A stretch of DNA of 36,247 nt from Candidatus Nanopelagicales bacterium (lineage in GTDB: Bacteria; Actinomycetota; Actinomycetes; S36-B12), in NCBI GenBank assembly GCA_023263845.1, contig JALQUH010000133.1, forward strand, positions 1 through 36,247. The letters run 5' to 3'. This document shows, one piece after another, positions 15,973-20,338 of this stretch (position 1 is the stretch's first letter; each line of letters opens with the position of its first letter). The notes under the pieces are model-generated. The model had not been told where the DNA came from. It ran no database searches and worked only from the letters and a program-made list of their open reading frames with translations. A program made the position numbers and the translations under genes.

Positions 15973-16689
15973 GTGACCGCGGTCCCGCCGGCCCGGAGTT
16001 CATCCGGTGCGGGCAACACGCGTGGTCTGATCCTCATCGTCGAGGACGAGGCGCCTATCGCTGAGGTCCTGCGCCTCTACCTGAACCGCGAGGGCTTCGA
16101 CGTGGCGGTGGCCACCGATGGCCCCGGGGGCCTCACCGCGATTGCCCAACGCCGCCCCGCGGCCGTCATCTTGGACGTAGGTCTTCCCGGCATGGACGGC
16201 ACAGAGGTCTGTCGCCGCATGCGGGCGGCCGGCGACTGGACGCCCGTGCTGTTCTGCACCGCCCGTGACGACGAGGTCGACCGCGTCCTTGGCCTGGAGA
16301 TGGGTGGCGACGACTACATCACCAAACCGTTCAGTCCGCGCGAGGTGGTCGCCCGGGTCAAGGTCGCCCTTCGTCATGCGCGCGGCCCGATTCACGATGA
16401 CGTCGTCACCGTCGGGCGCGTGTCCCTCGATCGTGCTTCGCGCAGGGTCACGGTCGACGGGGCGGAGATCGTGCTGACGGCGACCGAGTTCGACCTCCTG
16501 GAGTACCTCATGGACCAGCCGGGTCGCGTGGTCTCCCGCGATCAACTTCTCGCTGAGGTGTGGGGTTACGCGGCGGTGGTCGGCACCCGCACCGTCGATG
16601 TGCACGTTGCCCAGGTTCGCGCCAAGCTCGGAGAGGCCAGCCCGATCCGCACGGTGCGCGGGGTGGGATACGCGGCGGAGGCTTCGTGA
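15973..16689 (+). CDS. OmpR/PhoB-family two-component response regulator
   Basis: Receiver: LIVEDE, ILDVGLPGMDG, CTARDD, DDYITKPFSPREVVARVK; winged-helix: LTATEFDLLEYLMDQPGRVVSRDQLLAEVWGY...RTVDVHVAQVRAKLG. Confidence 0.95.
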   Translation: MTAVPPARSSSGAGNTRGLILIVEDEAPIAEVLRLYLNREGFDVAVATDGPGGLTAIAQRRPAAVILDVGLPGMDGTEVCRRMRAAGDWTPVLFCTARDDEVDRVLGLEMGGDDYITKPFSPREVVARVKVALRHARGPIHDDVVTVGRVSLDRASRRVTVDGAEIVLTATEFDLLEYLMDQPGRVVSRDQLLAEVWGYAAVVGTRTVDVHVAQVRAKLGEASPIRTVRGVGYAAEAS

Positions 16690-18056
16690 GCCGACCGGGC
16701 ATCCTTTCCCGGATCCTGCTGCTGGCCACCGCGGTCGCCAGCATCGCTGTCGTCGTCGCGGGCCTGGTCTCCCTTCCCCTCATCCGGAGCAATGCCCAGG
16801 CCATCGCCGCCGATGATCTGTCTCGACTCGCGGATCTGACCGCGTCGTCCTTGCGGGTCGATCGCGAAGGCCGATATGTCGTGCCTCAGCGGGTGGGAAG
16901 TGTCCTGCTGGCCGAGGGAGTAACCGCGTACGTGGTTTCGACGGGCGCCACCGATCTACCCGCCGGGGTCGACGACGCGGATGTTGCTGCGGTGACCGCC
17001 GGCGAGTCGGTGCAGCGCACGGCCGACACCGTCGACGGCACAGTTCTCATTGCGGGCCGGGCATACGAGCCGGGGACAGGCGTGATCCTCGTCCAGTCGG
17101 CCTCGGTGGCGGGCAGTTCAGCCGGCGACATCCTTGTGCGTCTCGTGATCGCCCTCTTCATCGGACTGGCGATCGCCGTCATCATCGCGGTCGTGGCATC
17201 CGTGCGCATCATCACGCCGCTGCGCCGCGCGGCCGATGCCGCACACCGACTCGGCAGCGGCGATCGGAACGTGCACGTCAATCCAGAGGGTCCTGCCGAG
17301 ATCGCCGACATCGCGGAGGCGCTCAACCAGTTGAGTGCGGCGCTCGCGGTCTCCGAGGGCCGACAACGCGAGTTCCTGCTCTCGGTCTCGCATGAGTTGC
17401 GTACGCCGATCACGTCGGTGCGCGGGTACGCCGAGGCCCTCGCCGATGGGCTGGTCGCGCCCGAAGATGTACCTCGGACAGGGGCGGTGGTCGCGGCCGA
17501 AACGCAACGCCTTGATCGACTCGTGAGCGATCTGCTGGACCTGGCCCGCCTGAGAGCCGACAACTTCACGGTCTCGCCCGTCGAGGTCGATGCGCGCAGC
17601 CTGCTCACGGAAGCAGCAGGGGTGTGGGCCGATCGGTGTGAGCGCGTCGACGTACGACTCGTGACGGAAATGAGTGCACAGACTGTGCCCGTCCTCGCCG
17701 ACCCTCTACGGCTGCGGCAGATCATCGACAACCTCGCGGAGAATGCCCTTCGGCTGGTCCCTACCGGTGGAGTCATCGTCTTCGCGGTGCGCGCTGAGGA
17801 CCGGTGGGGTGTCATCGAGGTGCGCGACTCTGGACCGGGGCTTTCCGCGGCAGACCTCGACGTGGCGTTCGAGCCGGGCATTCTGCACGAGCGCTACCGA
17901 GGCATCCGCCAGGTCGGTACCGGACTTGGCCTCGCGCTCGTGGGCCGCCTCTCCCAGGAGATGGCCGGCTTCGCTCAGGCGGGCGTGGCGCCCGAAGGCG
18001 GCGCCGCCTTTACCGTGCGCGTCCCACGCTCTGGAGCGAACCCTACGAATGGCTGA
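16686..18056 (+). CDS. Membrane sensor histidine kinase (HAMP-HisKA-HATPase)
   Basis: Two TM segments flanking an extracytoplasmic domain, H-box LLSVSHELRTPITSVRGYAEAL, N-box IDNLAENALR, G-boxes VRDSGPGLS, GTGLGLALV; GTG overlaps regulator stop. Confidence 0.94.
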   Translation: MSRPGILSRILLLATAVASIAVVVAGLVSLPLIRSNAQAIAADDLSRLADLTASSLRVDREGRYVVPQRVGSVLLAEGVTAYVVSTGATDLPAGVDDADVAAVTAGESVQRTADTVDGTVLIAGRAYEPGTGVILVQSASVAGSSAGDILVRLVIALFIGLAIAVIIAVVASVRIITPLRRAADAAHRLGSGDRNVHVNPEGPAEIADIAEALNQLSAALAVSEGRQREFLLSVSHELRTPITSVRGYAEALADGLVAPEDVPRTGAVVAAETQRLDRLVSDLLDLARLRADNFTVSPVEVDARSLLTEAAGVWADRCERVDVRLVTEMSAQTVPVLADPLRLRQIIDNLAENALRLVPTGGVIVFAVRAEDRWGVIEVRDSGPGLSAADLDVAFEPGILHERYRGIRQVGTGLGLALVGRLSQEMAGFAQAGVAPEGGAAFTVRVPRSGANPTNG

Positions 18057-18088
18057 CACCCGCCAGAACTAGCGATAAGAAGGACTCC

Positions 18089-19765
18089 ATGTCCTGCAAA
18101 ATGCTCGTGCTCGCCGCCTGTGGCGCCCTCGCTGTGGGCATCGCCGGACCTGCTCTCGCGGCAGGCCCCGTCATGCCACCGTCGATTCCCGACACCCCGG
18201 AGAACCGGGAATATTACGAGTTCATCTTCAGCGAGACGGATCCGAACTGGGCTCCGCAGGGCACGATCGTGGCTGACTCCGGCTTCCGCGCCGAGCCCAA
18301 CGGCCTGCCCTATCCGAACTACGGCCCCAATCTCGATCGGGCCTCGCTCTTCTTCGGCACACCGGACGACAGCGTCGTACCCATGGACAGCGCCTCGATG
18401 ATTGATCTCTATGGGGACGGAGTGTGCGCCGGACCCGTTGACTCCTCAGGTCAGTGTGAATTGACCCCGGCCGCTGAATACTTCGCGATGGTGATCTTCT
18501 TTGAGAGCTCTGGTGGACATTGTGAGGGCTTCGCGGTGACCACAGCCGGGCTGTTCAACGGAGAAATTGATCCGGCTGCCGTGCAGTCGCCGAATCTTGG
18601 GCTTAACAGCTACCTGGGCATCACCACACAGAACACGATCGCACGCAACTGGGCCACCCAGTTGACCACTCCGAGGACCAGGCTCACTCCCGCCCAGGTC
18701 GTGTCTGAACTGATTGAGCAGTTGCAGGATGGGCAGGTGCCCTCGATCATCACCATCTACTGGGTCAGCCCACAGGGTGATCCCGAGGGCCATGCGATCA
18801 CACCTTTCGCGGTCTACGACCGCGGCAATGGCGTGTACGACATTGGCATTTACGACAACAACTACCCGTTCAAGGAGCGGGCCATTCACGTCGACACGGT
18901 GGCGAATAGCTGGGAGTACCTCGTCTTCGCCACTCCGGGACAGGCCCCCAACATGGCGAGCGGTGATGCCTCCACCATGTCGCTTCAACTGCAGTCGGTA
19001 GCCGATTCACTCGCCGTGAATCCGTGTCCGGTGTGCGCTGGTGGCCGCGACACGAACCTCATCATTACCGCCCCGGTCCCCGTGGCCGCGGGTGGCGCCA
19101 CGATCGAGCAGCTTCTGCTGGATCTCAATGACGAAGCCCTGCCGCAGGATCGCTACTCGACCGTGGCGCCACTGGATCCGAACACCCCGGATACGGCCGA
19201 CTTCGTCACCCTCGACGTCGATCCCGGTGGCGGCTACAAGTACGTAATCGGGGCTCAGGACACTACGGCGGCATTCCCCTTGTCCGTAAGTGAGCTCTCC
19301 GCAGAGGGGCACAAGGAGGTACGCGTCGCATCGTTCCCCGCTGGCGGCACTGGGGTGACGGTGTACGACGACGACGGAGTCTTCGGGTTCGCGGCCGATG
19401 TGCCGACAACCCCACGTCTGGAGCGCTCCTTCACGGTCGGCGGCCGCACCTACATCGTGGTGACCTCGGCAGGCTCAACGGTGGCCGCGGGCAACGGCCG
19501 TGGAACCCAACTCGTACGTGCGCAGGGCCGAGTGCTCTTCGGCGACGACAACAGTGTCGGCGGCAAGATCACGGTCAAGGCGACGCTCGACCTCGGCTCG
19601 AAGGAGCGCACTTACCGCGCGAGCGGGGCAGCGTACCCGGCTGGTGGCAACCTGGTGCTGGTCTACAAGGACTGGAAGAAGTCCAGTCAGGAGCCGACGC
19701 TGTGGGTCGACAAGAACGGCGATGGAACCCTCGACAAGCAGTTGACGATGAATAAGGTTCGCTAG
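18089..19765 (+). CDS. Secreted protein of unknown function (558 aa), candidate papain-like Cys/His/Asp-Asn fold with C-terminal Ca-loop-like motif
   Basis: SD aagaagga before ATG 18089; Sec-type signal MSCKMLVLAACGALAVGIAGPALA-AG; motifs GGHCEGFAV, GHAITPFAVYD, YDIGIYDNNYPF; CPVC; DKNGDGTLD near C-terminus. Track ORF start 17804 is inside the kinase gene and not preferred. Confidence 0.8.
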   Translation: MSCKMLVLAACGALAVGIAGPALAAGPVMPPSIPDTPENREYYEFIFSETDPNWAPQGTIVADSGFRAEPNGLPYPNYGPNLDRASLFFGTPDDSVVPMDSASMIDLYGDGVCAGPVDSSGQCELTPAAEYFAMVIFFESSGGHCEGFAVTTAGLFNGEIDPAAVQSPNLGLNSYLGITTQNTIARNWATQLTTPRTRLTPAQVVSELIEQLQDGQVPSIITIYWVSPQGDPEGHAITPFAVYDRGNGVYDIGIYDNNYPFKERAIHVDTVANSWEYLVFATPGQAPNMASGDASTMSLQLQSVADSLAVNPCPVCAGGRDTNLIITAPVPVAAGGATIEQLLLDLNDEALPQDRYSTVAPLDPNTPDTADFVTLDVDPGGGYKYVIGAQDTTAAFPLSVSELSAEGHKEVRVASFPAGGTGVTVYDDDGVFGFAADVPTTPRLERSFTVGGRTYIVVTSAGSTVAAGNGRGTQLVRAQGRVLFGDDNSVGGKITVKATLDLGSKERTYRASGAAYPAGGNLVLVYKDWKKSSQEPTLWVDKNGDGTLDKQLTMNKVR

Positions 19766-19769
19766 CGAA
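19758..19769. repeat. 12-bp perfect palindrome TTCGCTAGCGAA spanning the stop codon of the secreted protein
   Basis: Direct reading. Confidence 0.6.
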
Positions 19770-19825
19770 GGGCAAACTTCCATGGCGGCCCACAATCAAT
19801 GCCTGCAGCAGGCGCACAGAAGGCG

Positions 19826-19840
19826 TAGGGTCAAGCCATG
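19826..19840 (+). promoter_or_regulatory. Predicted -10 TAGGGT (19826-19831), 6 nt before the DUF2752 gene ATG; leaderless start
   Basis: TAGGGT-caagcc-ATG; 5-bp hairpin GCCTG-cag-CAGGC at 19801-19813 falls near the -35 region. Confidence 0.6.
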
Positions 19841-20338
19841 ACTGCGGTGCATGAGCAGCCGACCCCGCCGGCCGCCGACGAGGTCGGCGCGGCGGCGCCC
19901 CCGCGTCGTGCGACGCAGGATCGCTCCCGTGCTCGCCGCATCCTGGCGCCGACCGCAACGGCCCTCGGTGTGGTGATTGCCACCGGCATCGTGGCCCGGG
20001 TCGATCCCAATGAGCCAGGGCACTATCCACTCTGCCCGACACTGGCGATCCTCGGTATTGACTGCCCGGCCTGCGGTGGATTGCGCGCAACGCATGCGCT
20101 CGCCAACGGAGACATCGTTCGCGCCATGGACCACAACCTCCTCTTCGTTCTCCTCGTGCCGGCGATCATCGTCGGCTGGGCGGTGTGGTTCTGGCGATCG
20201 TGGACCGGCAAACGCGGGGAGGACTCGCCTCGCAAGCGCGCCCTCGCGAAGTACGGGCCGCTGGTACTGCTCCTGGTTCTCGTCGCCTTCGGGATCGTGC
20301 GCAACTTCGTGCCCTATCTCGGCTCGGGGGTCGGCTAG
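19838..20338 (+). CDS. DUF2752 membrane protein
   Basis: YPLCPTLAILGIDCPACGGLRATHALANGDIVRAMDHNLLFVLLVPA signature. Confidence 0.88.
   Translation: MTAVHEQPTPPAADEVGAAAPPRRATQDRSRARRILAPTATALGVVIATGIVARVDPNEPGHYPLCPTLAILGIDCPACGGLRATHALANGDIVRAMDHNLLFVLLVPAIIVGWAVWFWRSWTGKRGEDSPRKRALAKYGPLVLLLVLVAFGIVRNFVPYLGSGVG

What the first reader, a model, noticed from the sequence alone, without database searches (positions are those of the whole stretch)
18089..19765. Secreted protein with candidate papain-like catalytic residues and an EF-hand/dockerin-like loop
The mature protein has GGHCEGFAV (Cys codon 18521-18523), then GHAITPFAVYD (His codon 18791-18793), then YDIGIYDNNYPFKERAIHVDTVANSWEY (Asp codon 18854-18856). 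The order Cys...His...Asp/Asn with a small-Gly context around Cys and an aromatic/beta-strand context around His and Asp/Asn is what a papain-like cysteine peptidase or transglutaminase-like fold would show. The C-terminal half looks beta-rich and ends with DKNGDGTLD, matching the DxNxDGxxD calcium loop. I do not recognise a named family with this architecture.
Basis: inference. Interest (0 to 1): 0.6.

Follow-up and report, generated by a model that had tools for sequence, protein, structure and literature searches.

The report
Uncharacterised family of exported papain-like enzymes
The gene encodes an exported protein whose Cys, His, Asp and Asn active-site residues are conserved in nearly all its relatives and whose predicted fold is closest to papain-type cysteine proteases, yet none of the protein-family libraries searched describes it; its relatives occur in several bacterial phyla and in a group of marine phages.

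Summary
The enzyme hypothesis survives its tests. In relatives found without using the motif, Cys145 and His235 are kept in 47/49, Asp256 in 48/49, Asn258 in 49/49. The only proteins lacking Cys145 and His235 are tandem paralogues that lost both together (Ser/Leu). AlphaFold models are confident (pLDDT 91.4, 90.5): Cys145 opens a helix, His235 lies on a strand, Asp256/Asn258 end the paired strand. The best solved-structure matches are clan-CA papain-like enzymes (T-Mac, phytochelatin synthase, staphopain), not transglutaminases. No Pfam, NCBIfam or PHROG model describes the family. Relatives occur in Actinomycetota, Chloroflexota, Myxococcota and marine siphophage contigs. "Dockerin/EF-hand" is wrong: it is one calcium-type loop between C-terminal strands, present in part of the family. 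The gene is accessory: eight of eight congeners lack it at this trp-operon site.

The parts
18077..18084 (+). AAGAAGGA, ribosome-binding-site-like stretch
   Evidence: sequence
18089..19765 (+). whole gene, 558 aa exported papain-like protein
18089..18163 (+). Sec signal peptide, residues 1-25 (hydrophobic stretch, ALA|A cleavage-like site)
   Evidence: sequence; relatives have the same type or a lipobox; inference, no signal predictor was run
18251..19063 (+). papain-like domain, residues 55-325
18425..18457 (+). Cys113 (18425-18427) and Cys123 (18455-18457), conserved pair, probable disulfide
   Evidence: 81/82 each in the wide set
18521..18523 (+). Cys145, predicted nucleophile at the N-terminus of helix 145-156
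18659..18661 (+). Gln191, almost invariant, role unknown
18791..18793 (+). His235, predicted general base on strand 232-246
18854..18862 (+). Asp256 (18854-18856) and Asn258 (18860-18862) of YDNN: predicted His-orienting residue and its neighbour
   Evidence: analogy with IdeC Asp284/Asp286 (PMC12418751)
19025..19036 (+). Cys313-Pro-Val-Cys316, second conserved Cys pair (80/82 in the wide set)
19064..19762 (+). C-terminal beta-rich region, residues 326-558
19709..19735 (+). DKNGDGTLD calcium-type loop between strands 537-541 and 550-552
16560..18056 (+). upstream histidine kinase gene (left flank of the insertion site)
19838..20338 (+). downstream DUF2752 gene (right flank of the insertion site)

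Best explanation
The gene encodes a self-contained exported cysteine hydrolase of the papain-like fold, most likely a peptidase. A Sec signal peptide takes it out of the cell; many relatives are instead lipid-anchored. Two disulfides (113-123 and 313-316) would stabilise it and leave Cys145 as the only free thiol of the mature protein. Cys145, activated by His235 and oriented by Asp256 (with Asn258 securing the site), would attack a peptide or isopeptide bond. The C-terminal beta region, stabilised in some members by a calcium loop, would hold or position the substrate. Shown by computation: sequence conservation, joint loss of Cys and His, predicted fold class, export-type N-termini, accessory status. 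Inferred: activity, disulfides, calcium binding, substrate.
For: Conservation of C145, H235, D256 and N258 in a set not chosen by motif, in distant Actinomycetota and in phage proteins that differ elsewhere in the motifs (GGLCEGFA, YDSNWP). Joint C145S/H235L change in the tandem paralogues of two genomes. Cys-His spacing 86-101 and His-Asp spacing 20-21 in all. Confident models with papain-like topology. Foldseek of the domain: T-Mac first (E 1.0e-3, probability 0.97), then phytochelatin synthase and staphopains; all of the top 15 are clan-CA enzymes. Mature protein has exactly five Cys: two conserved pairs and C145. T-Mac is a proven cysteine protease (PMC11833123).
Against: Foldseek TM-scores are low (0.2-0.3 of the query) and only one match reaches E 0.001. 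Profile-profile comparison with papain C1 is not significant (2.7%, E 0.017), although it aligns His235 with the papain His. No residue equivalent to the oxyanion Gln/Lys before the Cys was identified. No biochemical data exist for any member found. Papain-like folds also include transferases and amidases.
Confidence: 0.72

Rival explanations
1. It has the papain-like fold and the thiol chemistry, but it transfers acyl groups (as phytochelatin synthase or cross-linking enzymes do) or cleaves peptidoglycan amides, rather than proteolysing proteins.
For: Phytochelatin synthase from Nostoc gives several of the top PDB matches. That family uses a Cys-His-Asp triad (PMC3101182). Asp rather than Asn as third residue.
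Against: The top single match is a proven protease. No cell-wall-binding domain was found. No neighbouring gene suggests a substrate.
Confidence: 0.18
2. It is a non-catalytic surface or adhesion protein that has kept a papain-like scaffold.
For: Two paralogues lacking both Cys and His persist in tandem with intact copies, so the scaffold alone can be retained.
Against: Nearly all other members, across phyla and in phages, keep Cys, His, Asp and Asn.
Confidence: 0.06
3. The conserved residues belong to another fold (for example transglutaminase core), and the match to papain-like proteases is incidental.
For: Low TM-scores; transglutaminase core also has a Cys...His...Asp order; hhalign sets GHCEGFA on the transglutaminase Cys motif.
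Against: That alignment has 0.6% probability; no transglutaminase is in the PDB top 50, whereas the top 15 matches are all clan-CA papain-like enzymes.
Confidence: 0.04

Closest known systems
T-Mac / C0362 of Treponema denticola (PDB 9mdk, 9mdm), IdeS/Mac-type (MEROPS C66)
   Same: best Foldseek match (probability 0.97); exported, lipidated precursor; Cys...His...acidic/Asn residues with H+22 and H+24 spacing (here Asp at H+21 and Asn at H+23); helical part then antiparallel sheet
   Different: 15% identity over about 129 columns; no sequence-profile match; different accessory domains (Ig-like before the enzyme, not a beta region after it); this family has disulfide-type Cys pairs; no equivalent of the Lys oxyanion residue identified
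Phytochelatin synthase, PF05023 / C83 (PDB 2bu3, 6th5)
   Same: papain-like fold, Cys-His-Asp triad
   Different: no sequence match; a transpeptidase acting on glutathione; no C-terminal beta region of this type
Staphopains, C47 (PDB 1cv8, 8oig)
   Same: secreted bacterial papain-like proteases; Foldseek probability 0.80-0.84
   Different: 14% identity, no profile match, smaller (about 173 aa mature)
Papain family C1, PF00112
   Same: hhalign places GGHAITP on the GGHAV motif of the catalytic His
   Different: not significant (2.7%); Asp instead of Asn; no CGSCWAF motif

Membership tests
papain-like cysteine proteinase superfamily (clan CA) | Cys-His dyad in that order, Cys at the start of a helix, His on a strand | tested here: met
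   C145 opens helix 145-156; H235 in strand 232-246; both nearly invariant
papain-like cysteine proteinase superfamily (clan CA) | third residue (Asn/Gln/Asp/Glu) at the end of the next strand | tested here: met
   D256 and N258 follow strand 249-255; nearly invariant
papain-like cysteine proteinase superfamily (clan CA) | structural similarity of the core to solved members | tested here: inconclusive
papain-like cysteine proteinase superfamily (clan CA) | oxyanion-hole residue | not testable with these tools
   needs the coordinates; no family-wide conserved Gln or Lys was seen 6-10 residues before C145
papain-like cysteine proteinase superfamily (clan CA) | hydrolysis through the Cys | not testable with these tools
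   bench test
IdeS/Mac peptidases (C66) | detectable sequence relationship | tested here: not met
   no PDB sequence match for P0001, A1 or A3
Peptidase_C1 (PF00112) | significant profile match | tested here: not met
   no Pfam match; hhalign 2.7%
Peptidase_C39_2 (PF13529) | significant profile match | tested here: not met
   own genome has no PF13529 match at all; hhalign 0.1%
Transglut_core (PF01841) | significant profile match | tested here: not met
   hhalign 0.6%
dockerin / EF-hand | paired loops with flanking helices (dockerin), or helix-loop-helix (EF-hand) | tested here: not met
   one loop, between strands 537-541 and 550-552; no Pfam match in the query

The most novel reading that the evidence does not exclude
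A separate lineage of exported papain-like enzymes, moved about as single-gene cargo and also carried by marine siphophages as a lipoprotein, modifies proteins on the outer face of cells, the phage branch acting on the surface of the infected host (for example to block superinfection).
Probability: 0.12. Interest if true: 0.7.

Novelty: new variant of a known kind. Interest (0 to 1): 0.45.

Why it matters
If true, a protein family found in 35% of the genomes of one actinobacterial order (58 of 166), and in Chloroflexota and phages, changes from 'hypothetical' to a testable exported cysteine hydrolase with named catalytic residues, a natural inactive paralogue as control, and a signature (GGHCxGxA...GHxxTPxA...YDNNxP) by which databases could gather it. 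It would add a family to the papain-like superfamily, and it gives marine phages a predicted surface-acting enzyme.

Tried and rejected
The first motif scan of GTDB genomes with the single protein found nothing; the alignment worked. PDB sequence searches with the protein and with two profiles gave only chance matches. Foldseek of the full-length model was swamped by beta-rich proteins, so the domain was folded alone. The viral fold library gave nothing significant. Weak Pfam matches (CBM_6 in 9 members, DUF4969, DUF7151) are not significant family labels; those examined further lie below cut-off and at protein ends. Gene neighbourhood: no recurrent partner across lineages; the adjacent histidine kinase and DUF2752 belong to the trp-operon block, not to this gene. 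Dockerin/EF-hand and transglutaminase readings were rejected as above. Loci from the genome search were not handed to the structure predictor, because its stated rule does not list them; loci from the search for related loci were used instead. Paper searches for the motif string found nothing.

Full report
Observation. The open reading frame at 18089-19765 (+) is uninterrupted and encodes 558 aa. The N-terminus is a signal-peptide-like hydrophobic stretch ending ALAAGP, with a ribosome-binding-site-like AAGAAGGA four bases before the ATG. No Pfam, NCBIfam or PHROG model and no PDB sequence matches the protein beyond chance.

Relatives. A whole-protein search of 99 related genomes found matches in 37. 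The window's genome (G000, 2.5 Mb in 295 contigs) has a second, lipoprotein-type copy on another contig. In the alignment of 49 of these proteins, which were not selected by motif, C145 is kept in 47, H235 in 47, D256 in 48, N258 in 49, Q191 in 48, C113 in 49 and C123 in 48. The two proteins without C145 and H235 are tandem neighbours of intact copies in two genomes of one genus (G016, G027), and both changed Cys to Ser and His to Leu; this is probably one ancestral event. A motif scan of GTDB genomes with the alignment gave 223 loci, the best 80 of which were fetched: Actinomycetota (including Nanopelagicales, Solirubrobacterales, Nocardia), Chloroflexota (Anaerolineae, Oscillochloris, Herpetosiphon), Myxococcota, and single Spirochaetales and Methanothrix MAG records that could be mis-binned. 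That scan used the YDNN motif itself, so conservation of D256 to P260 in that set is partly by construction; C145 and H235 were not part of the pattern, and are kept in 80/82 each. None of the 79 members of alignment A2 has a Pfam or NCBIfam match that names the domain. By sampling with profile A3, the domain is in 58 of 166 genomes of the order (27 of 80 of good quality), 5 of 297 across the phylum sample including G000, and 11 of 201 in the phylum of an Anaerolineae MAG.

Fold. AlphaFold2 on A2 gave a full-length model with mean pLDDT 91.4 and pTM 0.87, and the domain alone (residues 50-325, alignment A3) gave 90.5 and 0.89. In both, C145 is the first residue of a helix (145-156), H235 lies in a long strand (232-246), and D256 and N258 directly follow the partner strand (249-255) of the same hairpin. 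That is the arrangement of papain-like enzymes (core described in PMC10318531). Foldseek of the domain against the PDB gave T-Mac of Treponema denticola first (E 1.0e-3, probability 0.97), then Nostoc phytochelatin synthase and staphopains (probability up to 0.84), with AvrPphB and ZUFSP lower; no transglutaminase was in the top 50. TM-scores are low (0.2-0.3 of the query), so the fold assignment is supported but not proven.

Active site. In IdeC, an IdeS-type enzyme, Asp284 (His+22) completes the triad and Asp286 (His+24) secures the oxyanion Lys84 (PMC12418751); in T-Mac the corresponding residues are Glu583 and Asn585 (PMC11833123). Here Asp256 is His+21 and Asn258 is His+23 and both are nearly invariant, also in phage proteins where residue 257 changes (YDSNWP). 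The simplest reading (inference) is that Asp256 orients His235 and Asn258 supports the site; the roles could be exchanged. No oxyanion residue could be named. The mature protein has five Cys: 113/123, 313/316 and C145. Two conserved pairs and one lone Cys fit an exported thiol enzyme.

C-terminal part. Residues 326-558 are predicted as beta strands and are shared by most members. The DxNGDGxxD loop lies between two strands at the end; a strict pattern finds it in 28 of 82 members of the wide set, many of them Chloroflexota lipoproteins ending in sequences such as GVDLDGDGEIDDEYVVDDSQ. It is a plausible calcium site, but not an EF-hand or dockerin.

Relation to named families. Profile-profile comparison with local members of Peptidase_C1, Peptidase_C39_2 and Transglut_core gave 2.7, 0.1 and 0.6% probability. 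The C1 comparison, though not significant, aligned GGHAITP with the papain GGHAV motif. So it works like a papain-type enzyme as far as the evidence goes, but it is not a member of those three families by the test used.

Genome context. The gene sits between a histidine kinase and a DUF2752 gene inside a block trpE - trp-associated membrane protein - response regulator - histidine kinase - [gene] - DUF2752 - trpC - trpB - trpA. In all eight congeners examined the kinase and DUF2752 genes are neighbours and the gene is absent there, for example in G006, where about 25 bases separate the two matches. Its closest relatives lie elsewhere: as a tandem pair next to a photolyase gene and an aldo/keto reductase gene (G038), or between ilvD and a thiamine-pyrophosphate enzyme gene of the acetolactate synthase type (G016). 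No partner gene recurs across lineages. It behaves as a single-gene accessory cargo (inference).

Phages. Twelve IMG/VR contigs encode a relative (27-30% identity) as the N-terminal part of a long acidic protein; in the two read in full it is 1144-1173 aa with a lipobox-like N-terminus. In L228 it lies between a terminase large subunit gene and an endonuclease gene, on a contig with portal, head, major tail and tape-measure genes. C, H, D and N are kept in all twelve.

Conclusion. Ordinary in kind (papain-like), new as a family in every library that could be searched. MEROPS itself was not available, and an entry there cannot be excluded.

Noticed in passing
L226-L237; L228:2716-6237; L226:2701-6135: Marine siphophage contigs carry the domain at the N-terminus of a long acidic putative lipoprotein beside the terminase gene, with the catalytic residues intact.
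   Followed up: partly
window 18056-19838 against G001-G008: Empty site: in eight congeners the histidine kinase and DUF2752 genes of the trp-operon block are adjacent, without the gene.
   Followed up: yes
L033:4564-7968: Tandem pair, one copy with Ser/Leu in place of the catalytic Cys/His, placed between ilvD and an acetolactate-synthase-type gene: a second placement inside an amino-acid biosynthesis block.
   Followed up: partly
L035:2397-6609 (G000 contig C73): The second copy in the same genome is a lipoprotein-type form whose start codon overlaps the end of a sensor-kinase-like gene; the window copy also follows a kinase gene. No general association was found.
   Followed up: partly
L102 (Nocardia altamirensis), about 5076: Reading frame of the homologue is broken by a stop codon near the start of the domain; possible pseudogene.
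   Followed up: no
L225:4974-6479 (Rhodococcus qingshengii plasmid pLP337): Plasmid-borne homologue annotated 'hypothetical protein', with all catalytic residues.
   Followed up: partly
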